This document shows positions 6,332 through 52,613 of a stretch of 64,000 nucleotides of DNA, piece after piece. How positions within the stretch are numbered: the first letter of the stretch is position 1; each line of letters begins with the position of its first letter. The DNA is taken from the NCBI GenBank assembly GCA_002356455.1, contig AP017968.1, forward strand, positions 930,001 through 994,000, read 5' to 3'. The DNA comes from Fusobacterium varium. GTDB taxonomy: Bacteria; Fusobacteriota; Fusobacteriia; Fusobacteriales; Fusobacteriaceae. The translations under genes and the position numbers were made by a program. The notes beneath the pieces were generated by a model that saw only the letters and a list, made by a program, of their open reading frames with translations, was not told the DNA's origin and did not search any database.

Positions 6332-7273
6332 ATGTTAAAGAAAATCATTGCAGCAGCTGCAGTAGGAACAGTGCTTCTTATTGCTGGTTGTGGAAAAGAA
6401 AAAACTACTGTACCAAAGGAGATAAATATAACCTATGTAAAATCTCCTTTAAATATACCATCTATTTTAGAAAAAAATAGAGATATGTTTGGAAAAGAAT
6501 TTTCAAAGGATGGAATAGAAGTAAAATTTCATGAGCTTACAACAGGGCCAGAACAAACACAGGCTCTGGCAGCAGGAGAATTAGATTTTCTTCATGCACT
6601 TGGAGGAACATCAGCTATCATAGCAGCTTCAAATGGAGTAGATTTAAAAATAACTAATATTTACAGCAGATCACCAAAAGGATTTATGATTATATCTAAA
6701 TCCTCAGATATAAAAGAGCCAAAAGATTTGGCAGGAAAGAAAGTAGCAGGGCCAAAAGGGACTATACTTCATCAGCTTTTATTAACTTATTTAGGAAAAG
6801 GTAATTTAAAAGTTGATGATATAGAATTTATTAATATGGGACTTCCAGAAGCTATGGCAGCATTGGAAAGCGGAAATGTGGATGCTGTACTTTTAGCAGG
6901 ACCAGTAGCTTTAAAAGCTATTAAAAATGGTGCAAGTGTAGTGACTAATGGAGAAGGACTTGTTGAGGGAATTGTTGTTACTGCTGTAAGTGGAAAGTTT
7001 CTTAAGGAGAATCCACAGCTTGTAGATAGATTTCTTAAAGTAAATGAAGAGGCTGTTAAATTTATAAAAGATGATTTTGAAACTACATTGAAAATAACAG
7101 CAGAGGATATAGGGCTTTCAAATGATGAAGTAATGGAGCTTTACCCATTATATGATTTTAATACTGAAATTAAAGCTTCTGACATAGATGATTTAGTAAA
7201 AACTCAAGATTTCTTAATAGAAAATGGTCTTCAAGAAAAGAAAATAGATATCAATACTATCATAAAAAAATAA
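6332..7273 (+). CDS. NitT/TauT-type substrate-binding lipoprotein
   Basis: Periplasmic ligand-binding subunit of the preceding ABC importer. It begins with a lipoprotein signal peptide, lipobox LLIAGC (Cys20), and continues as a two-lobed SsuA/TauA/ThiY-like fold: NITYVKSPLNIPSILEKNRD near the start, LAAGELDFLHALGG (ligand-cleft loop), then KEPKDLAGKKVAGPKGTILHQLLL and ALESGNVDAVLLAGP. The 313 residues are typical. GGAGGG lies about 8 nt upstream of the ATG. The ligand is not predictable from motifs alone. Confidence 0.9.
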   Translation: MLKKIIAAAAVGTVLLIAGCGKEKTTVPKEINITYVKSPLNIPSILEKNRDMFGKEFSKDGIEVKFHELTTGPEQTQALAAGELDFLHALGGTSAIIAASNGVDLKITNIYSRSPKGFMIISKSSDIKEPKDLAGKKVAGPKGTILHQLLLTYLGKGNLKVDDIEFINMGLPEAMAALESGNVDAVLLAGPVALKAIKNGASVVTNGEGLVEGIVVTAVSGKFLKENPQLVDRFLKVNEEAVKFIKDDFETTLKITAEDIGLSNDEVMELYPLYDFNTEIKASDIDDLVKTQDFLIENGLQEKKIDINTIIKK

Positions 7274-34634: not shown

Positions 34635-35465
34635 ATGGAAAAAATAGAAAAAAATGAGAAAAGGAATTCAGTTACAAAGAGTGATTTAACAAAAGTTTTT
34701 TGGAGATCATTTCCTTTACAAGCATGTTTTAATTATGAAAGAATGCAGAATGTAGGTTTCTGTTATTCATTGCTTCCTATTTTTAAAAAACTTTATCCTA
34801 AAAAAGAAGATATGTCAGCGGCTTTAAAAAGACATCTTGAGTTTTTTAATACTACACCACAAACTGTTACTTTTATCACAGGGGCATGTATAGCTTTGGA
34901 AGAACAAAATGCTAAAGCTGATGGGAATTTTGATATGGCATCTATTGCTGCTTTAAAAGCTGCGTTAATGGGACCCATAGCAGGAATAGGGGATTCTTTC
35001 TTTTGGGGAACTTTCCGTATTATTGCTGCGGGGATAGGATGCAGTCTGGCTACACATGGAAGTATACTTGGACCAATACTATTTTTACTTATATTTAATA
35101 TTCCTCATTATCTGGCAAGGTATTATGGACTTAAAATAGGATATAAAGGAGGGATAGAATTTATTGCCAATGCACAGGAATCAGGAATGATAGGGATTCT
35201 CACTAATTGTGCAAAGGTTATGGGATTGTGTGTGGTAGGAGCTATGATAGCTTCAATGGTAAAATTTACTATTCCTTTTACTATCAGTATTACTGGTGCG
35301 ACAATAAAAGTACAATCTATATTTGATCAGATTCTGCCATCTGTATTGCCGCTTATATTGACGTTTATAATTTATATGCTGTTAAAAAAGGGGATTAAGA
35401 CTACTCATGTTATGTTTGGGTTAATTATTATAGGTATATTAGGAACTTATATAGGAGTGTTATAA
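34635..35465 (+). CDS. PTS mannose-family EIID component
   Basis: A 276-residue membrane protein with the EIID signature LQACFNYERMQNVGFCYSLLP and the conserved GPIAGIGDSFFWGTFRIIAAG. The last PTS subunit of the operon. The stop overlaps the start region of the SIS-domain gene, so expression is coupled. Confidence 0.94.
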   Translation: MEKIEKNEKRNSVTKSDLTKVFWRSFPLQACFNYERMQNVGFCYSLLPIFKKLYPKKEDMSAALKRHLEFFNTTPQTVTFITGACIALEEQNAKADGNFDMASIAALKAALMGPIAGIGDSFFWGTFRIIAAGIGCSLATHGSILGPILFLLIFNIPHYLARYYGLKIGYKGGIEFIANAQESGMIGILTNCAKVMGLCVVGAMIASMVKFTIPFTISITGATIKVQSIFDQILPSVLPLILTFIIYMLLKKGIKTTHVMFGLIIIGILGTYIGVL

Positions 35466-39064: not shown

Positions 39065-39226
39065 GACTAAATCCATATAAGTGGAATTTAAACTTATTTC
39101 TTTTAATGTGCAAATTGGACATTCTATTTTTGGACTAAATCCATGTAATTGGAATTTAAACTTACTTTTATTTCAATATCAGTCCATCTATATTTCAGAC
39201 TAAATTCATGTAAGTGGATTTAAAAT
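39065..39226 (+). CRISPR. CRISPR array 1 (3 repeats, 2 spacers), type VI-C
   Basis: 29-bp repeats at 39065-39093, 39133-39161 and a degenerate terminal one at about 39198-39226. The repeat opens GACTAAATCC and closes GGAATTTAAAC. Within it AAATCC pairs with GGAATTT (one bulged A) around an 8-nt loop, leaving a 3' AAAC, as expected for a Cas13 5' handle. Spacers are 39 and 36 bp (39094-39132, 39162-39197). All copies carry one or more changes from the array-2 consensus. The end of the array is about 30 bp from the cas13c ATG. Confidence 0.92.
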
Positions 39227-39255
39227 ATTTAAATTAATATAAAGTGAGGAATTTT

Positions 39256-42200
39256 ATGGAAAATAAAAATAAACCCAATAGAGGCTCGATAGTTAGAATT
39301 ATAATTTCTAATTATGACATGAAAGGAATAAAAGAGCTTAAAGTTCGTTATAGAAAACAAGCACAACTGGATACTTTTATTCTACAGACTACTCTTGATA
39401 AAAGTAATAACTCTATTTTAATCAATGATTTTAGAGTTAAAGCCAGAGAAAAATATAGATATAGCTTTACATATGATGGAAAAGAGAAATTCTCTGTTCC
39501 ATCTAACAGCATTATTGTAACTAAAATAGATAATGCAGCTCCAGAAAAATCTAAAGAAATAAGAAAATATAAGATAACTTTAGGAATAGATGAAAAATGT
39601 AAAACTGGAAGTATGATTACAGCTGCCATAGAAGACTTATTAGAAGATGACAGAGTGAGAGAAGGAATAAGAAATCCTAGAAGAAAAGCATCAAAAACTG
39701 AAAGAAAACTCATAACAGAATCTATCTGCCATAACTATGCTCAAATAACTCAGTGTCCAGTTGAAGAAATAGACGCTGTAAAAATCTATAAAGTAAAGAG
39801 ATTTTTGAGCTATCGTTCTAATATGTTACTATTTTTTGCTTTGATAAATGATTTTTTATGTAAAAACTTAAAAAATGAAAAAGGTGAAAAAATAAATGAA
39901 ATATGGGAAATGGAAAATAAAGGAAATAATAAAAAGATAGACTTTGATGAGAACTACAATATATTAGTTGCACAAATTAAAGAGTATTTTACTAAAGAGA
40001 TTGAAAATTATAATAATAGAATAGATAATATTATTGATAAGAAGGAATTGTTAAAATATTCTGAAGAAAAAGAAGAAAGTGAAAAAAATAAAAAATTAGA
40101 AGAATTGAATAAATTAGAGTCTCAAAAATTAAAGATTTTAACTGATGAAGAGATAAAAGCAGATGTCATAAAAATAATAAAGATATTTTCTGATTTAAGA
40201 CATTCATTAATGCACTATGAATATAAATATTTTGAAAATTTATTTGAAAACAAAAAAAATGAAGAATTAGCTGAATTGTTAAATTTGAACCTATTTAAAA
40301 ATCTTACTCTGCTAAGACAGATGAAAATTGAAAATAAGACTAATTATTTAGAAGGGGATGAAAAATTTAACATCCTAGGAAAAGATGTAAGGGCTAAAAA
40401 TGCACTTGGACATTATGACCTTTTAGTTGAACAAAAGAATGGTTTTAATAATTTTATAAACAGCTTTTTTGTTCAAGATGGAACAGAAAATCTTGAGTTT
40501 AAAAAATTTATTGATGAGAACTTTATAAAAGCTCAAAAAGAATTAGAAGAAGATATAAAAAACTGTAAAGAATCAGTAAAAAAGTTAGAAAAAAAATTAA
40601 AAGAAAATCCAAAAAAATCTGAAGACTTGGAAAAAAAATTAGAAAAAAAACAAAAAAAATTGAAAGAATTAAAAAAAGAATTAGAAAAAATGAAGCAGCA
40701 CTACAAAAGATTAAACTGTGCTTATGTATGGGATATTCATAGTTCAACTGTATATAAGAAACTATATAATGAAAGAAAAAATTTGATAGAAAAATATAAT
40801 AAGCAACTAAATGGGCTACAAGATAAAAATGCTATAACTGGTATTAATGCACAACTTTTAAGAATAAAAAAAGAGATGGAGGAAATTACCAAAAGTAATT
40901 CTTTGTTTAGACTGAAATATAAAATGCAGATAGCATATGCTTTTTTAGAAATGGAATATGAGGGAAATATTGCTAAATTTAAAAATGAATTTGATTGTTC
41001 TAAAACAGAGAAAATTCAAGAATGGTTAGAAAAAAGTGAGGAATATTTAAATTATTGCATGGAAAAAGAAGAGGATGGAAAAAATTATAAATTTCACTTT
41101 AAAGAAATATCTGAAATTAAAGACACACATAATGAGGAATGGTTGGAAAATACTTCAGAAAACAATTTATTTAAATTCTATATTTTAACTTATTTACTGC
41201 TACCTATGGAATTTAAAGGAGACTTTTTAGGAGTTGTGAAGAAACATTATTATGATATAAAGAATGTAGATTTTACAGATGAAAGCGAAAAAGAATTGTC
41301 TCAGGAACAGATAGATAAAATGATTGGAGATAGTTTTTTCCATAAAATTCGTTTATTTGAAAAAAATACAAAAAGATATGAAATAATAAAATATTCTATT
41401 TTAACCTCAGATGAAATAAAGAAATATTTTGAATTATTAGAATTAAAAGTACCTTATCTTGAATATAAGGGTATTGATGAAATAGGAATATTTAATAAAA
41501 ATATAATTCTTCCAATTTTTAAATACTACCAGATTATTTTCAGATTGTACAATGATTTAGAAATACATGGACTATTTAATGTATCATTTGATATAAATAA
41601 AATATTGAGTGATTTAAAAAGCTATGGCAATGAAAATATTAATTTCCGAGAATTTCTTTATGTAATAAAGCAAAATAATAATTCAAGTACTGAAGAAGAG
41701 TATCAGAAAATTTGGGAAAAGTTAGAGTCAAAATATTTAAAAGAGCCTCTGTTGACTCCAGAGAAAAAAGAAATTAATAAAAAAACAGAAAAAGAATTGA
41801 AAAAATTAGATGGGATAAGTTTTCTTAGAAATAAAATTTCTCATTTAGAGTATGAGAAAATAATAGAAGGAGTTCTAAAAACAGCAGTTAATGGAGAAAA
41901 TAAAAAAACTTCTGAAACCAATGCTGATAAAGTATTCCTAAATGAAAAAATCAAGAAAATAATAAATTTTATTAAAGAAAATGAATTAGATAAAATTGAG
42001 CTGGGCTTTAATTTTATCAATGATTTTTTCATGAAAAAAGAGCAATTTATGTTTGGACAAATAAAGCAAGTAAAAGAAGGAAATTCAGATAGTATAACGA
42101 CTGAAAGAAAAAGAAAAGAGGAGAATAATAAAAGACTTAAAATAACCTATGGATTAAACTATAATAATTTAAGTAAGATTTATGAATTTTCAAATACTTT

Positions 42201-42732
42201 AAGAGAAATAGTAAATTCTCCTTTATTTTTAAAAGACAGCACTCTTCTAAAAAAAGTTGATTTATCTAAAGTAATGCTGAAGGAAAAACCAATATGTAGT
42301 TTGCAGTATGAAAATAATACTAAATTAGAAGATGATATAAAAAGAATATTACTTAAAGACAGTTCAGATATTATGGGAATTTATAAAGCAGAAGTAGTAA
42401 AGAAATTAAAGGAAAAGCTGGTTTTGATATTTAAATACGATGAAGAAAAAAAAATATATGTAACAGTATATGACACTTCAAAAGCAGTTCCTGAAAATAT
42501 ATCAAAGGAAATATTAGTAAAAAGAAATAACTCAAAGGAAGAATATTTTTTTGAGGATAATAAGAAAAAATATACTACTCAATATTATACTTTAGAAATA
42601 ACTAAAGAAAATGAATTGAAAGTAATTCCAGCAAAAAAACTAGAAGGAAAAGAATTTAAAACTGAGAAAAAAGAAGAAAATAAACTTATGTTAAATAATC
42701 ATTATTGTTTTAATGTAAAAATTATCTATTAA
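39256..42732 (+). CDS. cas13c: Cas13c, type VI-C CRISPR RNA-guided RNase
   Basis: A single-protein effector of 1158 residues from ATG 39256 (GAGGA upstream; GTG 39244 is less likely). Two HEPN RxxxxH nuclease motifs: RHSLMH at 315-320 and RNKISH at 858-863, both in typical contexts (DLRHSLMHYEY; FLRNKISHLEYEK). Two HEPN motifs, this length and this spacing, a flanking 29-bp repeat array and a Fusobacterium-like background together support Cas13c. A Lys/Glu-rich coiled coil spans about 425-487. On target RNA recognition the family cleaves RNA including in trans; many Cas13 proteins also process their pre-crRNA. No cas1, cas2 or known accessory gene is nearby. Arrays lie on both sides. Confidence 0.92.
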   Translation: MENKNKPNRGSIVRIIISNYDMKGIKELKVRYRKQAQLDTFILQTTLDKSNNSILINDFRVKAREKYRYSFTYDGKEKFSVPSNSIIVTKIDNAAPEKSKEIRKYKITLGIDEKCKTGSMITAAIEDLLEDDRVREGIRNPRRKASKTERKLITESICHNYAQITQCPVEEIDAVKIYKVKRFLSYRSNMLLFFALINDFLCKNLKNEKGEKINEIWEMENKGNNKKIDFDENYNILVAQIKEYFTKEIENYNNRIDNIIDKKELLKYSEEKEESEKNKKLEELNKLESQKLKILTDEEIKADVIKIIKIFSDLRHSLMHYEYKYFENLFENKKNEELAELLNLNLFKNLTLLRQMKIENKTNYLEGDEKFNILGKDVRAKNALGHYDLLVEQKNGFNNFINSFFVQDGTENLEFKKFIDENFIKAQKELEEDIKNCKESVKKLEKKLKENPKKSEDLEKKLEKKQKKLKELKKELEKMKQHYKRLNCAYVWDIHSSTVYKKLYNERKNLIEKYNKQLNGLQDKNAITGINAQLLRIKKEMEEITKSNSLFRLKYKMQIAYAFLEMEYEGNIAKFKNEFDCSKTEKIQEWLEKSEEYLNYCMEKEEDGKNYKFHFKEISEIKDTHNEEWLENTSENNLFKFYILTYLLLPMEFKGDFLGVVKKHYYDIKNVDFTDESEKELSQEQIDKMIGDSFFHKIRLFEKNTKRYEIIKYSILTSDEIKKYFELLELKVPYLEYKGIDEIGIFNKNIILPIFKYYQIIFRLYNDLEIHGLFNVSFDINKILSDLKSYGNENINFREFLYVIKQNNNSSTEEEYQKIWEKLESKYLKEPLLTPEKKEINKKTEKELKKLDGISFLRNKISHLEYEKIIEGVLKTAVNGENKKTSETNADKVFLNEKIKKIINFIKENELDKIELGFNFINDFFMKKEQFMFGQIKQVKEGNSDSITTERKRKEENNKRLKITYGLNYNNLSKIYEFSNTLREIVNSPLFLKDSTLLKKVDLSKVMLKEKPICSLQYENNTKLEDDIKRILLKDSSDIMGIYKAEVVKKLKEKLVLIFKYDEEKKIYVTVYDTSKAVPENISKEILVKRNNSKEEYFFEDNKKKYTTQYYTLEITKENELKVIPAKKLEGKEFKTEKKEENKLMLNNHYCFNVKIIY

Positions 42733-42995: not shown

Positions 42996-43140
42996 GGGGA
43001 TAGACAAAGGAGAAATAATAGAATAAGAGGTATAAAAAGAAGAAGAGGAAAAATAATTTAAAGAAAAAATAGAAAATAAAGAGAGATCGATAAAAACCAG
43101 TAGAGAAAGCATTGAAAAATAAGGATGAAAAACTTAACTA
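42996..43140 (+). other. CRISPR leader 2
   Basis: Shares with leader 1 an almost identical end (AAAGAAAAAATAGAAAATAA, AAAAACCAGTAGAGAAAGCA, TTGAAAAATAAGGA) and a weaker match near GATAGACAAA. It directly abuts array 2. No strong -35/-10 pair was found in it. Confidence 0.75.
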
Positions 43141-43433
43141 GACTAAATCCATGTAAGTGGAATTTAAACATTTAAATCAAGTTCATAATATTGTGAATCA
43201 TCTTTAGACTAAATCCATGTAAGTGGAATTTAAACTCTTCTAAGAATTCTTCCATCTGGTTTCTCCAAGATGACTAAATCCATGTAAGTGGAATTTAAAC
43301 GTTTCAGAATTTAATTCTAAATTAGCTCTTTCTAAAGTGACTAAATCCATGTAAGTGAAATTTAAACTTTTCTACTTCGAGAACTCTCGAAATAATTATA
43401 AAAAGACTAAATCCACATAAAAAAAATATTTTA
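43141..43433 (+). CRISPR. CRISPR array 2 (5 repeats, 4 spacers), type VI-C
   Basis: 29-bp repeats at 43141, 43207, 43272 (these three identical), 43339 (one change) and a truncated terminal repeat from 43405. Spacers of 37, 36, 38 and 37 bp (43170-43206, 43236-43271, 43301-43338, 43368-43404). Degeneration at the right end and the leader on the left give left-to-right transcription, as for cas13c. The fourth spacer contains a perfect small palindrome, TTCGAGA-AC-TCTCGAA. Confidence 0.97.
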
Positions 43434-43849: not shown

Positions 43850-44752
43850 ATGGATAACAAGAGAAGCACAAAGAATCAACCATTTTGCTGGCAGGAGAAA
43901 AAAATACTGCGATTGCTAAGATGTCAGTATGAGGGAAAGGAGCATGACAAACTTAGAAATTTGTATTTAACTCTTACTGAAATCTACAGTGATTTTAATG
44001 GGCAGGATATCAAATACTACACTCAAACAATAATTAAATATAGCAGCTTAGGTAAGGATTGGATACCAAAAGGATTAAAAATATTTGAAAACTTAAAAGT
44101 GATACAGTTGGTGGAAGAAAGAAATAAGGGGAAATTTAAAGGAAAAAGATTAATATTCACTCCTGAAAATATCGAAGAAATGGAAAAATTTACCAATGAA
44201 CAAAAAATCAATGACGAGAATACCATTCCTGATAAAACCGTTACTGAATTTTTAGAGCCATCAGAAGATAGTCTTTTATTAGAAGATAATAAAAGAATAG
44301 AAGATATAAATAATACACACACAGGTGAAGATAAAAAAGTTGATGATAATCTACAATGAGAAGAAGAATTTGAAAAAGATAAATTAAGTGATACTCCTAT
44401 GGAGATACAGGACATATTAAAAAAATACAGGGATTTAGAACTCCCAGATTTTAAATATCCTCCAGAGAACTATATTATCTTGAGAGTGTATAGGGAGCTA
44501 GGAATTGCAAAGCTGTATGAAGCATTGACATTGATGTCAAAATCTGAATTTGTAAAAAATAATATGAGTATAAATGCAATATTTAAAATTGAAAATCTTA
44601 AAAAAGCTCTCAATGGAAATTTTAAAGATAAAACAGGTATAGGCAAAAAGAGTATCCCTGATACTAAAAAAGAGTTTAAAGAGCCTGTATATGAAGACTT
44701 TACAGGGGATTTTATAAAAAATCTGCTCAATGGAACAGCTGGGGGAAAATAA
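43850..44752 (+). pseudogene. Phage/plasmid-type replication initiator, interrupted by in-frame TGA
   Basis: Two open frames (43850-44359 and 44399-44752) lie in the same reading frame, separated only by TGA at 44357-44359 and 13 open codons rich in Glu/Lys. Joined, they make a protein of 300 codons including the stop: an N-terminal winged-helix domain (NQPFCWQEKKILRLLRCQYEGK; SSLGKDWIPKGLKIFENLKVIQLVEER), an acidic linker, and a C-terminal helical region (YIILRVYRELGIAKLYEALTLM) as in DnaD-like phage replication proteins. A dnaC-type gene follows directly, the usual partner. A nonsense mutation is the simplest reading; the downstream half could still be made from ATG 44399. Confidence 0.75.
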
Positions 44753-45559
44753 ATGGTAAAATGTCAGTTTTGTGGAAAAGATTATGTGAAAAATAAAAAT
44801 AAATATTTTAAAATGCTTCCAGAGGGGATTAAAAAAAATCTGGAGTATATACCAGCATGCAGCTGTCTGGAAGACAGCAAGGAAAGAGAAATGGAGGAAC
44901 TGGAAAAGAAAAGAATGCAGGAGTGCATTAAAAACAGGCTGAAAAAATGCAGAGATATTTCTGTAATGGATAAAAAATTTTTGAACAGCAGATTTGAAAA
45001 TGCAGATATGAGCAGTAATCATATGCAGCTGGCAAAAAAATATGTGGAAAGTTTTCTGAAAAAAGATAAAAAAGAGGGACTGCTTTTTTATGGTGGAATA
45101 GGCACAGGAAAGACTTTTGCAAGCGCATGTATAGCAAATTATCTCATGGAGAGAGGGAAAACTGTCATAGTAATTAATTTGGGGCTGTATTTTAATAAGC
45201 TGAGTATTGAATGGGGAGAGGGAGAAAAGATTATTCTCGAACAGGCAGAAAAATGTGATCTGATGATTATTGATGATTTTGGCGCTGAAAAAGGTCTGGA
45301 TAAGAATCAGACTGGATGGAGGGCAGAAAAAATATATAATCTCATAGATGGGAGATATAGAAGTGAAAAACCTTTGATAATATCGACAAATCTGAATTTC
45401 AGTGAAAATGAAAATAAATGTGAGATAACTGAGAAATTTTCAACACAGGGGCATAACAGAATTAGAGATAGAATAATTGATATGTGCTTTCCTGTACAGA
45501 TAGCAGGAAAAAGCAGGAGAGGAATGACACAGGAAAGATTCAGTGAATTTATATCATAG
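44753..45559 (+). CDS. DnaC/DnaI-like phage replication ATPase (helicase loader)
   Basis: A 268-residue protein. N-terminal zinc-binding Cys pattern (CQFCGKDY and PACSCLED), then an AAA+ domain with Walker A GGIGTGKTF (about 113-121), Walker B DLMIIDDFGAEK and arginine-finger region GHNRIRDRI. This fits helicase loaders of phages and mobile elements. The start ATG is 1 bp past the preceding stop. The gene appears intact although its neighbours are interrupted. Confidence 0.88.
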   Translation: MVKCQFCGKDYVKNKNKYFKMLPEGIKKNLEYIPACSCLEDSKEREMEELEKKRMQECIKNRLKKCRDISVMDKKFLNSRFENADMSSNHMQLAKKYVESFLKKDKKEGLLFYGGIGTGKTFASACIANYLMERGKTVIVINLGLYFNKLSIEWGEGEKIILEQAEKCDLMIIDDFGAEKGLDKNQTGWRAEKIYNLIDGRYRSEKPLIISTNLNFSENENKCEITEKFSTQGHNRIRDRIIDMCFPVQIAGKSRRGMTQERFSEFIS

Positions 45560-45576
45560 AAAATCTGGGAGGAAAA

Positions 45577-45630
45577 ATGAATGGAAAGGGATTAGAAAAT
45601 AACTATAAAAGGGGAACTGCTGATGAATAG
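45577..45630 (+). CDS. 17-codon ORF coupled to the HTH gene
   Basis: GGGAGG is 5-6 nt before the ATG and the stop overlaps the next gene's start (GATGAATAG). It may only serve translational coupling. No function can be proposed. Confidence 0.35.
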   Translation: MNGKGLENNYKRGTADE

Positions 45631-45862
45631 GGAAGAATATATCTACAAACAGCTTGAAAAACTTTCATCTCTGGATAAAGCTCTTTCTTAGGAAATAGCT
45701 GTATCTCTTGGGGAATGGGCAACAATTGAGGAAGTGGCAAAATATTTAAAAAGACATAAAAATACCATCTATGACAAAGTGGATGGGGGAGATCTTCTCT
45801 ACAGGAGAATAGGACCGAGTATTTTAATATATACCAGAAGTATAATTTTTCTGCTGGAATAA
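45623..45862 (+). pseudogene. Excisionase-like HTH protein, interrupted by in-frame TAG
   Basis: The frame from ATG 45623 runs 79 codons, broken only by TAG at 45689-45691 (codon 23). Beyond it the sequence reads GEWATIEEVAKYLKRHKNTIYDKV, then GDLLYRRIGPSILIYTRS, a MerR/Xis-type HTH (DNA-binding excisionase-like) domain. With the interrupted initiator upstream, this indicates decay of a mobile-element module. A downstream internal start could still make the HTH domain. Confidence 0.75.
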
Positions 45863-45969: not shown

Positions 45970-46287
45970 ATGGCAGCAGGAGAAAATCAGGTAATTTTAA
46001 CAGTGGTACAAAAAGAAATTGTAAAGGTGGAAAATGCTATCAAGAGAGAGAAAGCTATATTGAAAAATATAGATGATATCACAGCAACTCTTGAGCATAT
46101 AGCAGAACAGGTGGAGGCAGGAACAGCGTTTCCGGAAAATTCAGCATATGAATCATACCAAGAGTGGCAGACAAGCGCTGAAAAAGAAGTCAAGTCTTAC
46201 AATACTTCATTGGAAACAATAGACAAGTACAGAAGTCTGCTGGGAGCATATGAATTTTATGTAAAAAATAATACACCAGAAGCTTAA
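45970..46287 (+). CDS. Uncharacterised 105-residue helical protein
   Basis: Not recognised. Two long helices with heptad-like pattern (VQKEIVKVENAIKREKAILK; EKEVKSYNTSLETIDKYRSL) separated by a loop. Strong AGGAGG 6-7 nt before the ATG. Part of the mobile-element region and followed by a terminator, so possibly a structural or regulatory phage protein. Confidence 0.65.
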   Translation: MAAGENQVILTVVQKEIVKVENAIKREKAILKNIDDITATLEHIAEQVEAGTAFPENSAYESYQEWQTSAEKEVKSYNTSLETIDKYRSLLGAYEFYVKNNTPEA

Positions 46288-46359: not shown

Positions 46360-46605
46360 ATGAAAAGTAATACAGAACTGTTTTTCAAGATAATAACTAC
46401 AACAGGAACTTTTTTATTGGCATATCACAAGTACATACTTTCACTGTTTGACAAAAAACTGGACAAGAGAGATTGTGAAAAAGAAAGACTGTATGCAGAG
46501 AAATTCAGAATAGAAAATATAAAGACACTAACTGATGGAATAAAAAGAATAGAAGAGAGAATGACAGGAATAGAAAAAGAATTGATGAAACAATACAAGA
46601 ATTAA
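46360..46605 (+). CDS. Small membrane-anchored coiled-coil protein
   Basis: An 81-residue protein: N-terminal hydrophobic segment (FFKIITTTGTFLLAYHKYIL, about 8-27), then a charged coiled coil (KERLYAEKFRIENIKTLTDG; IEERMTGIEKELMKQY). The layout recalls phage holin-accessory (haemolysin XhlA-like) proteins with the order of parts reversed. GAGGGAGAG precedes the ATG. Function unproven. Confidence 0.6.
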   Translation: MKSNTELFFKIITTTGTFLLAYHKYILSLFDKKLDKRDCEKERLYAEKFRIENIKTLTDGIKRIEERMTGIEKELMKQYKN

Positions 46606-46912: not shown

Positions 46913-49900
46913 ATGATTAAAGAAATGGAGAAAGCTTTAAAAAGATATCTCAAGGGAAAGAATAGAATAACAATGGGAGTGGTAGTAGCTTTTTTACTGG
47001 GAAGCAGTTTTGCATTTGGAGATGTTACAGTAAAATATGAAGATTCAACTATTAAAATACTAGATAATTCAGGAACTATTACAGAAATTGGAACAGTAAC
47101 AAAAAATTCTGATGATGAATTTACCTGGACATTACCAGAAGGAGCAAATATAACTGAAACTGTAAAAATAGATGATACAGTAAATACAAATAATATTAAA
47201 GTAAATATAGTGAATAGTGGAACTATAAGCAGTTCTGGAAATGGAAATTATATAGGAAATGGAATTAGTTCTTATTCTAATTCAGATAGTAATACAATAG
47301 GAGATATAACAAATAGTGGAAGTATAAGAGGAAACAGTACTGGTGGAGGTAAATCAGGAAATGGAATATTTTCTGATTCTGATACTTTAAATAGTATAAT
47401 AGGAAATATAACAAATAGCGGAAGTATAAGTGGAAACAGTACTGTTGAAGCTCATTCAGGAAATGGAATATATTCTTATTCTGATACTTCAAATAGTATA
47501 ATAGGAAATATAAAAAATAATGGAAATATCAATGGCAGTACTACTGGCAGTGGAAATAAATCAGGAAATGGAATATATTCTTATTCTGATTCAGCTAGTA
47601 CAATAGGGGATATAACAAATAGTGGAAGTATAAGAGGAAACAGTACTGGCGGAGATAGTTCAGGAAATGGAATATATTCTTATTCTGATTCAGATGGTAG
47701 TACAATAGGAGATATAACAAATAGTGGAAGTATAAGAGGAAACAGTACTGGCGGAGATAAATCAGGAAATGGAATATATTCTTATTCTGAGACTGGAGCT
47801 AGTACAATAGAAGATATAACAAATAGAGGAAGTATAAGTGGAAACAGTACTGGTGGAAATGATTCAGGAAATGGAATATATTCTTATTCTAAACCAAGTA
47901 GTACAATAGGAAATATAACAAATAGTGGAACTATAAGTGGTAGTACTACTGGTAATGGAGATAAATCAGGAAATGGAATTTTTTCTTATTCTAAGACTGG
48001 AGCTAGTACAATAGGAGATATAATAAATAGTGGAACTATAAGTGGCAGTACTACTGGTATTGGAAATTATTCAGGAAATGGAATTTATTCTACTAGTAGT
48101 GAGAGTATAATAGGCAATATAATAAATTATGGAATAATTAGTGGAAAAAGTACTAGTGGAAGTGAATCAGAAAATGGAATTTATTCTTATTCTTTTAGAG
48201 ATGATTCTATTTCAAAGAGTAAAATAGGCAACATAACGAATTATGGAACAATTAGTGGAAATGGTAGAAACGTTTATAGTGGAAATGGAATTTATTCTTC
48301 TTCTAGTACTAATCTTTCTTCTACAAGTAGTAAAATAGGAAAGATAACGAATTATGGAATTATTAGTGGCAGTACTACTGGTAGTGGAAATTATTCAGGA
48401 AATGGAGTTTTTTCTTCTTCTTCTTCTGGTTCATCAATAATAGAATCAATTTCAAATACTGGTGTTATAATGGGAAGCAACAATGGAATATATATTAAAG
48501 GAGATTCTAGTTCAAAGATTGATAAATATAGCAATTATGGACTTGTAATAGGACAGACACCAGTCAAAATTGAAGGTGGCGGAACAGTAAACACTCTAAA
48601 AGAACAGGGAATGGCTATAACTCTTGATGGAAGTGGAGATATCACTTCTATTGCTTCAGGAACTGGAGGAAGTACAGGAATATATTCTATAGTGAATACT
48701 CAATTAAGAGATAATTCAGGAAGCGCAGTATCATCTGGTGCAGTAGATTCATATGATGTATATACAAGCGACCAAAGTATTTCAGATACTATCATCAATG
48801 GTGCTGGTGTAAATAGTGGAACAGTGACAATAGAAGCAGATAAGAATTTCTCACTTAATGGTGGAGTTGTCAATGCCTATAAAACTGCTGTTACAGTTAA
48901 AGATGGAGCTTCATTTACTGGTACAGATGTAACAATTAATGGTGGGGGCTTAGATGGAAATACTGTTGTTATTTCTGGAAGTGCAGGAGCTAATACAGTA
49001 AATATATCTGGAAATTCTTTTATCAATGGAAAAGTTGATTTAGGAGATGGAGATGATATTTTATTTATTGGAAATTCCACTCAAATCAATGGAGATATAG
49101 ACGGTGGAACAGGTAATGGGGATATTCTTAATTTTGGTTCAGCCGTTTCCAGAGCAGTGGGAAATGATAATATAAATCTTTTCCATAAAATATCAAATAT
49201 GGAAAACATAAATATAAATCAGAAAGTAACTGCATTTGAAACTTCCGAAATTACAGGAGCAAAAGATATTAATATTGGTAAAAATGGGGAGTTTGTATTA
49301 AGAATAGATACAAGCAAAGTGGACAACACAAGTGGGACAGATAAAATTACAGGTCATGCACTTTATGGGAATATAGGAACAATATCTTCAACAGGAGGAA
49401 AATTATTACTTGCTCTTAATGGAGTAGGGAATGAAAGTATAATAAGTTTTGGAAATACTCAATTGGATAGCAGTTTGGTGACAGGAGATGAAGGAAAATA
49501 TCAGGAAGATATAACTTTAGATACAACATCACTGCTTCACTCAGTAGGAAAAATAGATTTATCAAACAATGAAATAAAAATTACAGCTAAATCTAATCTT
49601 CCTACAAAACCAATTAATCCAGATAATATAACATATGAAAAATTAAATAAAATATATCATGGTATTCTTTCGGTAGATAAATTAGAAAACTTTAATGTAG
49701 ATACTGATGAAAAACTCTCATCATTTATGGGATACTTAAATGACATCTATGCAGGAAATCCATACTCATATTCTTCTGAATTATCAAGAAAATCAATGGG
49801 AATGTTCAGAGATATAGTTACTGAAAATTTATTTAAAGCAGATACAGGAAAATGGATGATATATGGCGGACTTACTCATATAGATGGAGGAACTAAAGAT

Positions 49901-50746
49901 ACATATTATGGAAAAGGATACTATACTTATGATATAGGAAGTTCTGATATAGATGCAGATACAAAAATCACAGGAGCATATATGCTTGGAGAATATGGTG
50001 TATCTGACACACTGACTTCTGGAGTGATAATCGGAGGAAATAAATTGAAATCTGATTTGTCTAATGGATCAAAAGTAGATGGAAGTGCAATGTATCTTGG
50101 AGCTTATGCGAAAAAATATATTGGAAATTTAAAAGTAACAGCAGGATTAGGATTCCAATATGGAGATTATGATGCAGACAGAACAGCAGCAGGAAGAGAA
50201 ATTACAGAAACAAGAAGTTATTCTTCAAGCTACAGTGATTTGACTTATGATATTTATCTAAATGGAAGATATTCACATAATATTAGAGAGAACTTATTCC
50301 TAGAACCTTATGGAACTTTATCATACACATATGTAGATCAAGATGGAGCAGATGAGGGAAATAAAACTTTAGCAATAGAAACAGATTCAAAATCATTTGA
50401 TTATACATCAGCCAAAGTGGGATTAGATCTTAAAAAAGTGATACCACATGAAAAAGGAAAGAGCACATTATCAGTTGGGGCAAGCTATACAAGACTGCTT
50501 AATGGCGCAGATGAAGAATATATCACAGGAAGATTTAAAGGTGGAAGCAACTTTGATATATTAGTTGCCCACAAGAATGAGCACAGCTTAGGATTGAATG
50601 CTAAATATACACTTGAACTGGAAAATGGAATCTTATTTGATGTAAAAGGAACTTACTCTGTAGAAAGAGATTCACATAATCAATCTGGAAAGAATAAGAC
50701 TAAAGGTGAATGGATAGTAGGAACAGGACTGGGTTATAAGTTCTAG
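46913..50746 (+). CDS. Type V autotransporter adhesin with about 12 internal repeats
   Basis: Large surface protein, 1277 residues. The extended signal peptide (KALKRYLKGKNRITMGVVVA, then a hydrophobic core ending FAFG) is the type seen on Fusobacterium autotransporters. Residues about 95-540 carry some 12-13 imperfect repeats of 32-37 residues (pattern IGDITNSGSIRGNSTGG, SGNGIYSYS), then a beta-helix-like passenger with NG/DG-rich turns (about 560-900) and a C-terminal beta-barrel (about 1000-1277) ending GLGYKF, the expected terminal aromatic. Likely an adhesin. GGGGGAGAGG precedes the ATG. Confidence 0.92.
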   Translation: MIKEMEKALKRYLKGKNRITMGVVVAFLLGSSFAFGDVTVKYEDSTIKILDNSGTITEIGTVTKNSDDEFTWTLPEGANITETVKIDDTVNTNNIKVNIVNSGTISSSGNGNYIGNGISSYSNSDSNTIGDITNSGSIRGNSTGGGKSGNGIFSDSDTLNSIIGNITNSGSISGNSTVEAHSGNGIYSYSDTSNSIIGNIKNNGNINGSTTGSGNKSGNGIYSYSDSASTIGDITNSGSIRGNSTGGDSSGNGIYSYSDSDGSTIGDITNSGSIRGNSTGGDKSGNGIYSYSETGASTIEDITNRGSISGNSTGGNDSGNGIYSYSKPSSTIGNITNSGTISGSTTGNGDKSGNGIFSYSKTGASTIGDIINSGTISGSTTGIGNYSGNGIYSTSSESIIGNIINYGIISGKSTSGSESENGIYSYSFRDDSISKSKIGNITNYGTISGNGRNVYSGNGIYSSSSTNLSSTSSKIGKITNYGIISGSTTGSGNYSGNGVFSSSSSGSSIIESISNTGVIMGSNNGIYIKGDSSSKIDKYSNYGLVIGQTPVKIEGGGTVNTLKEQGMAITLDGSGDITSIASGTGGSTGIYSIVNTQLRDNSGSAVSSGAVDSYDVYTSDQSISDTIINGAGVNSGTVTIEADKNFSLNGGVVNAYKTAVTVKDGASFTGTDVTINGGGLDGNTVVISGSAGANTVNISGNSFINGKVDLGDGDDILFIGNSTQINGDIDGGTGNGDILNFGSAVSRAVGNDNINLFHKISNMENININQKVTAFETSEITGAKDINIGKNGEFVLRIDTSKVDNTSGTDKITGHALYGNIGTISSTGGKLLLALNGVGNESIISFGNTQLDSSLVTGDEGKYQEDITLDTTSLLHSVGKIDLSNNEIKITAKSNLPTKPINPDNITYEKLNKIYHGILSVDKLENFNVDTDEKLSSFMGYLNDIYAGNPYSYSSELSRKSMGMFRDIVTENLFKADTGKWMIYGGLTHIDGGTKDTYYGKGYYTYDIGSSDIDADTKITGAYMLGEYGVSDTLTSGVIIGGNKLKSDLSNGSKVDGSAMYLGAYAKKYIGNLKVTAGLGFQYGDYDADRTAAGREITETRSYSSSYSDLTYDIYLNGRYSHNIRENLFLEPYGTLSYTYVDQDGADEGNKTLAIETDSKSFDYTSAKVGLDLKKVIPHEKGKSTLSVGASYTRLLNGADEEYITGRFKGGSNFDILVAHKNEHSLGLNAKYTLELENGILFDVKGTYSVERDSHNQSGKNKTKGEWIVGTGLGYKF
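47200..48520 (+). repeat. Tandem coding repeats of about 100 bp in the adhesin
   Basis: Twelve or so units with near-identical blocks such as ATAACAAATAGTGGAAGTAT and TCAGGAAATGGAATATATTC. Units in 47280-47840 are the most alike at DNA level, later ones more diverged. Unit lengths are multiples of three, so copy-number change would keep the frame. Confidence 0.9.
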
Positions 50747-50767: not shown

Positions 50768-51061
50768 ATGACAGAAGGGGAATTTATAAGATTCTATAAA
50801 AAGAGAAATGGACTAAAGAATCAGCAGGAAGTAAAAGAAAAGATAGACTTATTCTGGAATACACTGCTAAAAGTTCTGGATAAAGGGGAAAAGGTAACCT
50901 TTAAAAATTGGGGAACATTTGAAGAAAAAGAGGTAAAACCAAGAAAAATAATGATAACTAAAATAAATAAATCTGGTTATACAAAATCTAAAAAGAAGAT
51001 AAGATTCAGAGCAGGAGCGGGCTTGCAGGATATAGTAAATGGAGCTGGTACTGATGAATAA
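50768..51061 (+). CDS. HU/IHF-family DNA-binding protein 1
   Basis: A 97-residue histone-like protein: N-terminal helical pair (GEFIRFYKKRNGLKNQQEVKEKIDLFWNTL) and the beta arm region (GEKVTFKNWGTFEEKEVKPRK), ending with KIRFRAGAGLQDIVNGA like the HU C-terminus (KxPxFxxGxxLKxxVN). It starts 21 bp after the adhesin stop with GGGGGAAG upstream and overlaps the next HU gene by 23 bp. May be co-expressed with the adhesin. Confidence 0.88.
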   Translation: MTEGEFIRFYKKRNGLKNQQEVKEKIDLFWNTLLKVLDKGEKVTFKNWGTFEEKEVKPRKIMITKINKSGYTKSKKKIRFRAGAGLQDIVNGAGTDE

Positions 51062-51326
51062 GAGAGAATTAGCAAAAGTATACAGTGAAACAAGTAAAGG
51101 GGAAATATCAGCAAGAAAAGCACTGAAAGAAATAGAAGTATTTCTTGAAACAATGCAGGAGGCTTTGCAGAAAAGTCATTCATTGATATTTAGAAATATA
51201 GGAATATTTGAAGTGAAGGAAAGAAAACCAAGAATAATAGCCAATCCAGTAACTAAAGAACCTATGAAGATTTATCCAAAAAAAACAGTGAAATTCAGAG
51301 AATCTAAAAATATTCAGGATAAATAG
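51039..51326 (+). CDS. HU/IHF-family DNA-binding protein 2
   Basis: A 95-residue HU-like protein. The ORF opens at ATG 51039, but ATG 51054 (MNKRELAKVYSETSKGEISARKA) matches the HU start better. The body shows SLIFRNIGIFEVKERKPRIIANPVTKEP, the DNA-arm motif (GTFxxRxRxAxxGxNPxT), and ends KTVKFRESKNIQD. It overlaps the first HU gene and could heterodimerise with it. Confidence 0.88.
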   Translation: MELVLMNKRELAKVYSETSKGEISARKALKEIEVFLETMQEALQKSHSLIFRNIGIFEVKERKPRIIANPVTKEPMKIYPKKTVKFRESKNIQDK

Positions 51327-51461: not shown

Positions 51462-52613
51462 TTATTTTATTGGTTGTATAATTTTTTTCACATATTTCTC
51501 TATTCTTTCTACAGCTTCTTTCAGTTTAAATATATCTGCTGTAAGTGATATTCTAAAATATTTTTCTGTTCCAAAAGAGATTCCCGGAACTACTGCCACT
51601 TGTACCTTTCTCAGTATATCCATTGCAAAATCAAAAGAATTTAATTCTGAAACTTCTGAATAATCTGCAAATATATAGAATGCTCCCTTTGGTTCAACTA
51701 CTTTAAATCCTAACTTTATTAAAGAATTTTTCATATATAACGCTCTTTCTTTATATATATTCATAAGTTCACTTCTGTCTTCAAACTTTTTCAGTGCAGT
51801 TTCTGCTGCTGCAATGGATAAAGTCACTGGAGAACTCAATGTATATAAGGTAGTATTCAAAAAATATCTTCTGTATTCCAATGGGAAAATAGTATATCCT
51901 ATTCTCCAGCCTGTCATTGAATGTGATTTTGAAAATCCATTTATTATGATAAGTTTATCTTTTATTCTGTCAAATGAACTGAAAGAGTGAAAATTATAAA
52001 ATGAAAGTTCACTATATATTTCATCTGATATAAGGAATATATCCCTTTTCTTTATAAAATCTGCTATTGTATTCATTTCCTCTAAAGTTAACACATTTCC
52101 TGTAGGATTACAGGGATTGCTTAAAAGTAAAGCTTTTGTTTTACTGGAATAATTTTCTTCTAATAATTCTGCAGTTATTTTAAACCCTGTTTTTGTTATA
52201 TCAACAAATACAGTTTCAGCACAGCACAAACTTATCATAGGTGGATATCCTGGATAAAAGGGTACTGGTACCATAACTTCATCTCCTGAATTTAAAATTG
52301 TTTTCAAACATGATGATAAAGCTTCTGAAGCTCCTACATTTATGATTACATTATCAGCTGCATAACTGGAACCATATTTTCTATTGTAATAGTCTGCTGT
52401 TAATGTTCTGATTTTTTCCCCACCACCAGTAGGAGAGTACCTCAGTTGATGCTCAGCTCCATATTTTAATGCCTCTGTTATTAGTTCTTTTGGTGAAGGA
52501 ATGTCTGGCTCTCCTATTGTTAGATCTATTGCATCTGAATATTTTCTTGATTCTTCATTGAGCGTTCTGATAAGGGAGTATTGAAGTTTTGATACTTCTC
52601 TGTTTATCTCCAT
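51462..52613 (-). CDS. PLP-dependent aminotransferase (class I/II), DAP-pathway aminotransferase candidate
   Basis: A 383-residue fold-type I aminotransferase with the PLP-lysine segment INGFSKSHSMTGWRIGY, NPCNPTGNVL, ISDEIYSEL and a terminal RIS substrate-binding Arg (FRISLTAD). Last gene in the lysC-dapA-dapB-dapH unit, 9 bp after dapH, so its probable job is N-acetyl-L,L-2-amino-6-oxopimelate transamination (PatA role); an aspartate aminotransferase role is the alternative. Confidence 0.85.
   Translation of the reverse strand: MEINREVSKLQYSLIRTLNEESRKYSDAIDLTIGEPDIPSPKELITEALKYGAEHQLRYSPTGGGEKIRTLTADYYNRKYGSSYAADNVIINVGASEALSSCLKTILNSGDEVMVPVPFYPGYPPMISLCCAETVFVDITKTGFKITAELLEENYSSKTKALLLSNPCNPTGNVLTLEEMNTIADFIKKRDIFLISDEIYSELSFYNFHSFSSFDRIKDKLIIINGFSKSHSMTGWRIGYTIFPLEYRRYFLNTTLYTLSSPVTLSIAAAETALKKFEDRSELMNIYKERALYMKNSLIKLGFKVVEPKGAFYIFADYSEVSELNSFDFAMDILRKVQVAVVPGISFGTEKYFRISLTADIFKLKEAVERIEKYVKKIIQPIK

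What the first reader, a model, noticed from the sequence alone, without database searches (positions are those of the whole stretch)
43850..45862. Two neighbouring replication-module genes each broken by a single in-frame stop
A DnaD-like initiator is interrupted by TGA (44357) and an excisionase-like HTH gene by TAG (45689); in both the frame continues with sensible protein sequence, and no frameshift is needed to join the parts. The dnaC-type gene between is intact. The simplest view is a decaying prophage or plasmid remnant. A less likely one is programmed readthrough or an element recoded for stops.
Basis: partly seen in the sequence, partly recalled or inferred. Interest (0 to 1): 0.52.

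Follow-up and report, generated by a model that had tools for sequence, protein, structure and literature searches.

The report
Decayed copy of repeated replication cassette
Two genes in this stretch of a gut bacterium's chromosome are broken by ordinary stop mutations in one of many copies of a phage-like DNA-replication cassette that sits in front of surface-protein genes; the breakage is ordinary, but the cassette, which seems to carry a replication origin inside a gene, is the more interesting thing.

Summary
In detail: a 300-codon DnaD-like initiator (43850-44752) carries one in-frame TGA (44357) and an 80-codon HTH_17 gene (45623-45862) one in-frame TAG (45689); dnaC between them is intact. 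Both stops are private to this copy: no other aligned copy has one there (0 of 25 HTH; 0 of 16 DnaD, 6 of these gapped). Recoding is unsupported: none of the 57 ordinary tRNAs has a stop-reading anticodon, and the one tRNA-Sec has no SECIS-like hairpin or conserved residue to serve. The locus is one copy of a multi-copy accessory cassette (DnaD-DnaC-HTH-p105-p81-autotransporter-HU-HU), found in many states of decay in four genomes. Within dnaD, the codons just before the TGA are almost frozen at synonymous sites, hold 15-bp iteron-like repeats and an AT-rich tail shared by initiators with three different N-domains, and survive in deletion derivatives: most likely a lambda-O-like origin inside the initiator gene. 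Verdict: decay, confirmed; 'prophage or plasmid remnant', partly. The origin and the cassette's mobility are inferred, not shown by experiment.

The parts
43390..43410 (.). approximate left edge shared by cassette copies; it meets the last, hybrid CRISPR repeat of the Cas13c array
   Evidence: homology to other copies begins here in many loci and the flanks differ
43850..44752 (+). DnaD-like replication initiator gene, broken by TGA
44357..44359 (+). in-frame TGA, codon 170, private to this copy
   Evidence: 0 of 16 other aligned rows has a stop there, 10 sense and 6 gaps; same-genome decayed copy L075 also sense
44180..44345 (+). probable in-gene origin: segment with frozen synonymous sites
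44216..44245 (+). two 15-bp iteron-like repeats (other copies have up to about ten)
44269..44299 (.). AT-rich palindrome, 13-nt arms
44303..44325 (+). 23-bp AT-rich origin tail shared by copies with different initiator N-domains
44399..44752 (+). 117-aa ORF of the initiator C-domain, possible restart product
44753..45559 (+). dnaC-type helicase loader, intact
   Evidence: Pfam IstB_IS21 1e-13; phrog_50 DnaC-like helicase loader 1.9e-45
45623..45862 (+). HTH_17 / excisionase-like gene, broken by TAG
   Evidence: Pfam HTH_17 29.6 bits, cut-off 27
45689..45691 (+). in-frame TAG, codon 23, private to this copy
   Evidence: 25 of 25 other aligned copies have sense codons there
45970..46287 (+). p105, conserved small protein of unknown function
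   Evidence: 85-99% identical, full-length or nearly so, in G000, G009 and G010
46360..46605 (+). p81, conserved small protein of unknown function
46913..50746 (+). autotransporter (type V secretion), 1277 aa
   Evidence: Pfam Autotransporter 7.4e-28
50768..51061 (+). HU/IHF-like DNA-binding protein 1
   Evidence: Pfam Bac_DNA_binding 1.5e-11
51039..51326 (+). HU/IHF-like DNA-binding protein 2
   Evidence: Pfam Bac_DNA_binding 2e-18

Best explanation
This is one decaying copy of a multi-copy accessory cassette of Fusobacterium chromosomes. The cassette joins a phage-type replication module (origin-binding initiator with a DnaD-like role, DnaC-type helicase loader, small excisionase-like HTH protein) to an autotransporter operon (p105, p81, autotransporter, two HU-like proteins). 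Shown: both stops are in the assembled sequence, are private to this copy, and lie in genes intact in sister copies; other copies have lost the same genes by deletion and frameshift. Inferred: the initiator works as lambda O does. Its N-domain would bind iterons that lie inside its own gene, the adjoining AT-rich tract would melt, and the conserved C-domain would bring in DnaC and the host helicase. In this copy the TGA cuts off the C-domain just after the origin segment, so the replicon is most likely dead, and the TAG removes the HTH domain. Once fixed in the chromosome the replication genes appear dispensable, while p105, the autotransporter and the HU genes usually stay.
For: Stops. Intact relatives: nearest DnaD copies 89% identical with no stop (G009); HTH 25 of 25 others sense at the column; DnaD 10 sense and 6 gaps of 16 others. 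Graveyard: of eight G000 cassettes examined (window, L073-L079), two have all three genes whole, the window has two nonsense mutations, and five have lost dnaC, HTH and p105. Origin: synonymous differences per site 0.13 and 0.09 at codons 121-160 against 0.23-0.87 in the other 20-codon blocks, ten copies; same-residue codons identical in 0.97 of comparisons at codons 119-158 against 0.74 overall, 0 of 5000 column shuffles reach it, best 40-codon block of dnaC 0.75 (6 copies of each gene); 15-bp-period repeats; tail shared across N-domain types A, B and C; tail pattern at 8, 12, 9 and 8 sites in G000, G008, G009, G010, reversed control 0. Phage kinship: phrogs DnaC-like helicase loader; a related pair with terminase- and portal-like neighbours in L088.
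Against: The parts after the stops still look constrained (dN/dS 0.23-0.25 for DnaD, 0.15 for HTH against L073, the latter from only 5 synonymous and 3 nonsynonymous changes), so either the stops are young or the fragments still work. Type-A initiators match no Pfam or NCBIfam family and only one weak phrogs model; 'DnaD-like' rests on type-B and type-C relatives that share the C-domain, and the predicted model is of low confidence. Low synonymous divergence in the linker could also come from gene conversion among copies. Nobody has shown replication from this segment. dnaC, p105 and p81 are whole, so decay is partial.
Confidence: 0.78

Rival explanations
1. Functional split: the TGA merely separates an origin-binding N-protein (169 aa) from a C-domain protein (117 aa, ATG 44399), both still used.
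For: The stop lies in the linker between domains; the C-domain has an in-frame ATG; the N-domain and the part after the stop keep dN/dS well below 1. Among 19 copies with whole dnaC in four genomes, 4 have a broken DnaD and 3 of these breaks (window, L095, L100) lie in or just after the linker. N-only ORFs exist in G010 (L098, L101, L102).
Against: 15 of those 19 keep a single full-length ORF. The N-only copies have also lost dnaC, as decay predicts. No clear ribosome-binding site before 44399 was seen by eye. It does not explain the TAG in HTH, where the only in-frame restart listed (GTG 45734, 42 aa) removes the start of the HTH domain.
Confidence: 0.1
2. Programmed readthrough or recoding of TGA (as selenocysteine or otherwise) and TAG.
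For: Frames continue cleanly. The genome does carry a tRNA-Sec over the family cut-off (anticodon tca). The 81 nt around the TAG fold somewhat better than shuffles (z -1.82, 7 of 200).
Against: No suppressor tRNA among the other 57. RNA after the TGA folds no better than shuffles (z -0.02 and 0.59). The aligned column lies in a variable, often gapped linker, not at a conserved cysteine. TAG ends dnaC in the same operon, and TAG ends 9 and TGA 3 of 44 window ORFs of 150 aa or more. No relative carries either stop.
Confidence: 0.02
3. Sequencing or assembly error in a repeated region.
For: The locus belongs to a repeat family, where short reads can be misassigned during polishing.
Against: Hybrid Illumina and PacBio assembly with error correction; this copy is distinct from the fuller same-genome copies (about 82-84% DNA identity to L073 and L074), and no fetched copy carries these stops.
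Confidence: 0.04
4. The frozen linker is not an origin: it reflects gene conversion among copies, or an overlapping RNA or antisense gene.
For: Cassette copies recombine (near-identical tracts within genomes). A 130-aa antisense ORF covers the segment in the window.
Against: Conversion would homogenise amino acids too, yet dN in the linker is not reduced; the tract is only about 120 bp and repeat number inside it varies between copies. The antisense stretch is not kept at that length: longest stop-free stretch 148 aa in the window, 83-106 aa in 7 of 8 others, 195 aa in the repeat-rich L099. No Rfam family matches the window.
Confidence: 0.25
5. Remnant of a prophage that once filled this site.
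For: Phage-type initiator and loader pair; a prophage with a related pair in G009 (L088) and a viral contig (L110).
Against: No structural, lysis or integrase gene in the cassette; the same non-phage gene set recurs in many copies. Of 13 integrase-family matches in the genome only one lies within 10 kb of any of the eight G000 cassettes.
Confidence: 0.08

Closest known systems
Phage lambda O/P replication module with ori inside gene O
   Same: Two-gene module, origin binder then helicase loader; iterons followed by an AT-rich tract in the middle of the initiator gene (lambda: four 18-bp iterons plus a 39-bp AT-rich region within O, PMC6022878, passages read).
   Different: Repeat period 15 bp with about 2 to 10 units; loader is DnaC-type; sits in chromosomal cassettes with autotransporter and HU genes, with 8-12 tail sites per genome in four genomes; origin function unproven.
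Phage replisome organisers and DnaD-like helicase loaders (phrog_5968, phrog_186, PF09681)
   Same: The prophage copy L088 matches these strongly and shares the C-domain with the window protein.
   Different: The window's own N-domain (type A) matches no named family.
Autotransporter (T5SS) and FadA loci of F. varium Fv113-g1 (PMC5720691)
   Same: Same genome; the paper reports 44 autotransporters, and FadA paralogues next to them.
   Different: In the passages and sections read, the paper does not describe the replication cassette or its origin; 'replication' and 'CRISPR' occur 0 times in its main text.
Phage-inducible chromosomal islands (PICI; PMC6092414, abstract in search listing only)
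   Same: Small chromosomal elements with phage-type replication genes and cargo (partly recalled).
   Different: No integrase or attachment site found in this cassette.

Membership tests
lambda-type O/P replicator | initiator gene followed directly by helicase-loader gene | tested here: met
   43850-44752 then 44753-45559
lambda-type O/P replicator | iterons inside the initiator gene, between its domains | tested here: met
   15-bp-period repeats in the linker; 2 in the window, up to about 10 in L099
lambda-type O/P replicator | AT-rich tract beside the iterons | tested here: inconclusive
   the 30-bp block at 44270 is 83% AT, but blocks along the gene range from 53 to 87%, so composition alone says little; conservation of the tract is strong
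lambda-type O/P replicator | autonomous replication driven by initiator and loader | not testable with these tools
   needs a plasmid test
DnaD family | match to DnaD domain models | tested here: not met
   type-A protein has no Pfam or NCBIfam match; a type-B relative matches DnaD_N below its cut-off and phrogs DnaD-like helicase loaders
DnaC/IstB-type helicase loader | AAA+ loader family match | tested here: met
   PF01695 1e-13 above cut-off; phrog_50 1.9e-45
Excisionase-family HTH (HTH_17) | HTH_17 above cut-off | tested here: met
   29.6 bits, cut-off 27; an intact relative scores 27.5 on NCBIfam excise, just below its cut-off 28.8
Prophage | structural and integrase genes in the same element | tested here: not met
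   none in the cassette; integrase-family places
PICI | own integrase and specific attachment site | tested here: not met
   no integrase in the cassette; attachment site not searched for beyond the edges

The most novel reading that the evidence does not exclude
Fusobacterium carries a domesticated family of lambda-O-like replicators, each with its origin inside its initiator gene, placed in front of adhesin (autotransporter) loci. Copies that have lost the initiator and loader still keep the origin, so intact copies might fire them in trans, amplifying or moving surface-protein genes, or the many origins might act as decoys that drain the initiators of infecting phages.
Probability: 0.15. 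Interest if true: 0.8.

Novelty: new variant of a known kind. Interest (0 to 1): 0.42.

Why it matters
The broken genes themselves are ordinary. The cassette matters because this strain is reported to carry the most autotransporters of the Fusobacterium compared (PMC5720691), and here a phage-type replicon with a probable in-gene origin is tied to such genes in copy after copy. It offers a testable route for how adhesin loci multiply and move, and would explain why the replication genes rot while the adhesin genes stay. Ectopic lambda origins block lambda infection (PMC4488673, abstract read), so an anti-phage role is also testable.

Tried and rejected
Selenocysteine: tested because the genome has a tRNA-Sec; no SECIS-like fold and no conserved residue at the column. 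Suppressor tRNAs: 57 ordinary tRNAs plus tRNA-Sec, 58 in all, agree with the 58 reported in the paper; none but tRNA-Sec reads a stop. Rfam: nothing in the window. Structure prediction of the read-through initiator with one relative was poor (mean pLDDT 41.6); its N-part shows helices followed by two strands, as a winged helix would, but I ran no fold search on so weak a model. Phage records: DnaC has 115 matches, all under 60% identity, no close phage source. p105 in plasmids: 2 of 72,556 records. Left-flank gene at 35465 gave no match in three relatives, uninformative by itself. Cassette at the orthologous site: the right-flank gene at 51462 is present in G008, G009 and G010, but window homology stops at 51481-51490 and no cassette adjoins it in the 13.7-14.5 kb examined (distant HU-like hits about 12.7 kb away in G008). 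Literature: no paper holds Fusobacterium, autotransporter and DnaC together (0 papers); two searches listed nothing on such a cassette, judged from the listings; this covers the open-licence library only.

Full report
Identity of the window. The genome's 4,122,841 bases in three contigs, the first of 3,965,155, equal the chromosome plus two plasmids of Fusobacterium varium Fv113-g1 (3,965,155 + 89,623 + 68,063; PMC5720691 Table 1). The window is chromosome 930001-994000. Of that paper I saw the abstract and outline, passages, section 8, and part 1 of 2 of section 12.

The DnaD-like frame 43850-44752 has one TGA at codon 170; the HTH_17 frame 45623-45862 has one TAG at codon 23; dnaC at 44753-45559 is whole. 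No frameshift is needed in either.

The stops are private. In an alignment of 26 HTH copies the window is the only one with a stop at column 23; four of those 26 (L080, L106-L108) are distant. In an alignment of 17 initiators, the stop column is sense in 10 of the 16 others and a gap in 6, never a stop. The closest initiators, in G009, are 89% identical with no stop. A decayed copy in the same genome (L075) is also sense there although broken elsewhere. So the TGA arose after these copies parted. Intact copies exist for both genes.

Recoding is not supported. The 57 tRNA places found by the Rfam model, plus tRNA-Sec, were all given to ARAGORN; only tRNA-Sec reads a stop. The RNA after the TGA has no unusual fold; the 81 nt around the TAG fold somewhat better than shuffles (z -1.82), which I regard as chance. 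TAG ends dnaC in the same operon.

What the locus is. The same genes recur together across G000, G008, G009 and G010: initiator, DnaC, HTH, p105, p81, then an autotransporter and two HU-like genes, or other surface-protein genes. I fetched 36 stretches of 19 kb around matches. The left edge is shared near window 43390-43410 and the flanks differ. The gene right of the cassette is present in three relatives without the cassette beside it. I therefore read it as an accessory, inserted cassette; how it moves is not shown, and no integrase belongs to it. Of 13 integrase-family matches in the genome, one lies about 3 kb from one cassette (3,156,459 against 3,160,058) and none within 10 kb of the other seven.

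State of the copies. Of eight G000 cassettes (window, L073-L079), L073 and L074 have whole initiator, dnaC and HTH; the window has two nonsense mutations; L075-L079 have lost dnaC, HTH and p105 and keep pieces of the initiator. L080 was left out: it has a distant HTH (37%) and p105 (62%) and no initiator. In four genomes 19 copies have whole dnaC (prophage L088 and the more distant L106-L108 left out); 15 of 19 have a whole initiator and 18 of 19 a whole HTH. The four broken initiators are the window (TGA), L095 (TAA), and L100 and L103 (frameshifts at A-runs). Where p105 is found it has no stop in any fetched copy.

Initiator anatomy. One C-domain is joined to at least three N-domain types: A (window), B (for example L073, L074, L086, L087, L096) and C (prophage L088), which points to modular exchange. 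Types B and C match replication-initiation and replisome-organiser families; type A matches none by name.

Probable origin inside the gene. Against the two G009 relatives, dS is 0.03-0.07 in codons 111-169 but 0.39-0.51 in codons 1-110 and 0.40-0.42 after the stop, while dN in the linker is 0.057, not reduced. Over ten type-A copies the trough is at codons 121-160; five type-B copies show a weaker dip (0.18 and 0.30 there, 0.31-0.88 in the other blocks). With 6 of the 10 type-A copies, 0.97 of same-residue codons are identical at codons 119-158 against 0.74 overall, 0 of 5000 column shuffles reach this, and the best dnaC block is 0.75. The segment holds 15-bp-period repeats, 2 in the window and 7 to about 10 in L075, L099 and L100, then an AT-rich palindrome and a 23-bp tail that also occurs with N-types B and C. 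The tail pattern, up to 2 mismatches, lies at 8, 12, 9 and 8 sites in G000, G008, G009 and G010, with 0 for the reversed control and 0 in G001 and G002.

Is the origin kept on purpose? Copies found through the initiator are biased towards keeping the linker. So I counted from p105 matches of at least 74% identity (19 sites), comparing positions by eye: the tail lies close upstream in 15 of 19 and dnaC in 13 of 19. The four without the tail pattern have type-B initiators. All 6 that lack dnaC keep the tail. This agrees with retention, but deletions that happen to spare the tail could do the same.

Mechanism. By analogy with lambda, where ori lies within gene O as iterons plus an AT-rich region and P brings in the helicase (PMC6022878, passages), the N-domain would bind the iterons, the AT-rich tract would open, and the C-domain with DnaC would load the helicase. 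In the window the TGA comes just past this segment and removes the C-domain. The step from anatomy to function is inference.

Verdict. The two stops are ordinary decay in one copy. dN/dS after the stops is still low, so the stops are probably young. The more interesting result is the cassette and its probable in-gene origin, which I did not find described in the open-licence library (listings only).

Noticed in passing
window 39244-42732, with repeats at 39066-39226 and 43133-43427: Cas13c (CRISPR type VI-C) effector, PADLOC profile score 1280.7 bits, with CRISPR repeats on both sides; the last repeat is a hybrid that runs into the cassette's left edge.
   Followed up: partly
G000 chromosome 2909048 and 3159861 (L078, L079), and L091: Single repeats of the Cas13c array lie at the left edge of two cassette remnants, and sequence like that before the array adjoins a cassette in G008, suggesting array and cassette edge have moved together.
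   Followed up: partly
L100 near 7250 and L103 (reverse strand) near 6445: Initiator frameshifts at runs of A: decay, or possible slippage-based switching.
   Followed up: no
L109: A viral-collection contig holds the cassette with its autotransporter frame cut short after about 97 codons and phage-like genes (integrase- and transposase-like by eye) following.
   Followed up: no
L096 and L097: Two cassettes in G008 are 98.5% identical over 3.6 kb but diverge in the autotransporter, consistent with recent duplication and passenger exchange.
   Followed up: no
G000 chromosome 2840380-2840470: tRNA-Sec gene, so this F. varium strain probably makes selenoproteins.
   Followed up: no
G000 chromosome 2282783-2282859: tRNA-like gene called tRNA-Tyr with the unusual anticodon ATA.
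   Followed up: no
window 50768-51326 and other cassettes: A pair of overlapping HU/IHF-like genes follows many of the autotransporters; their role is unknown.
   Followed up: no
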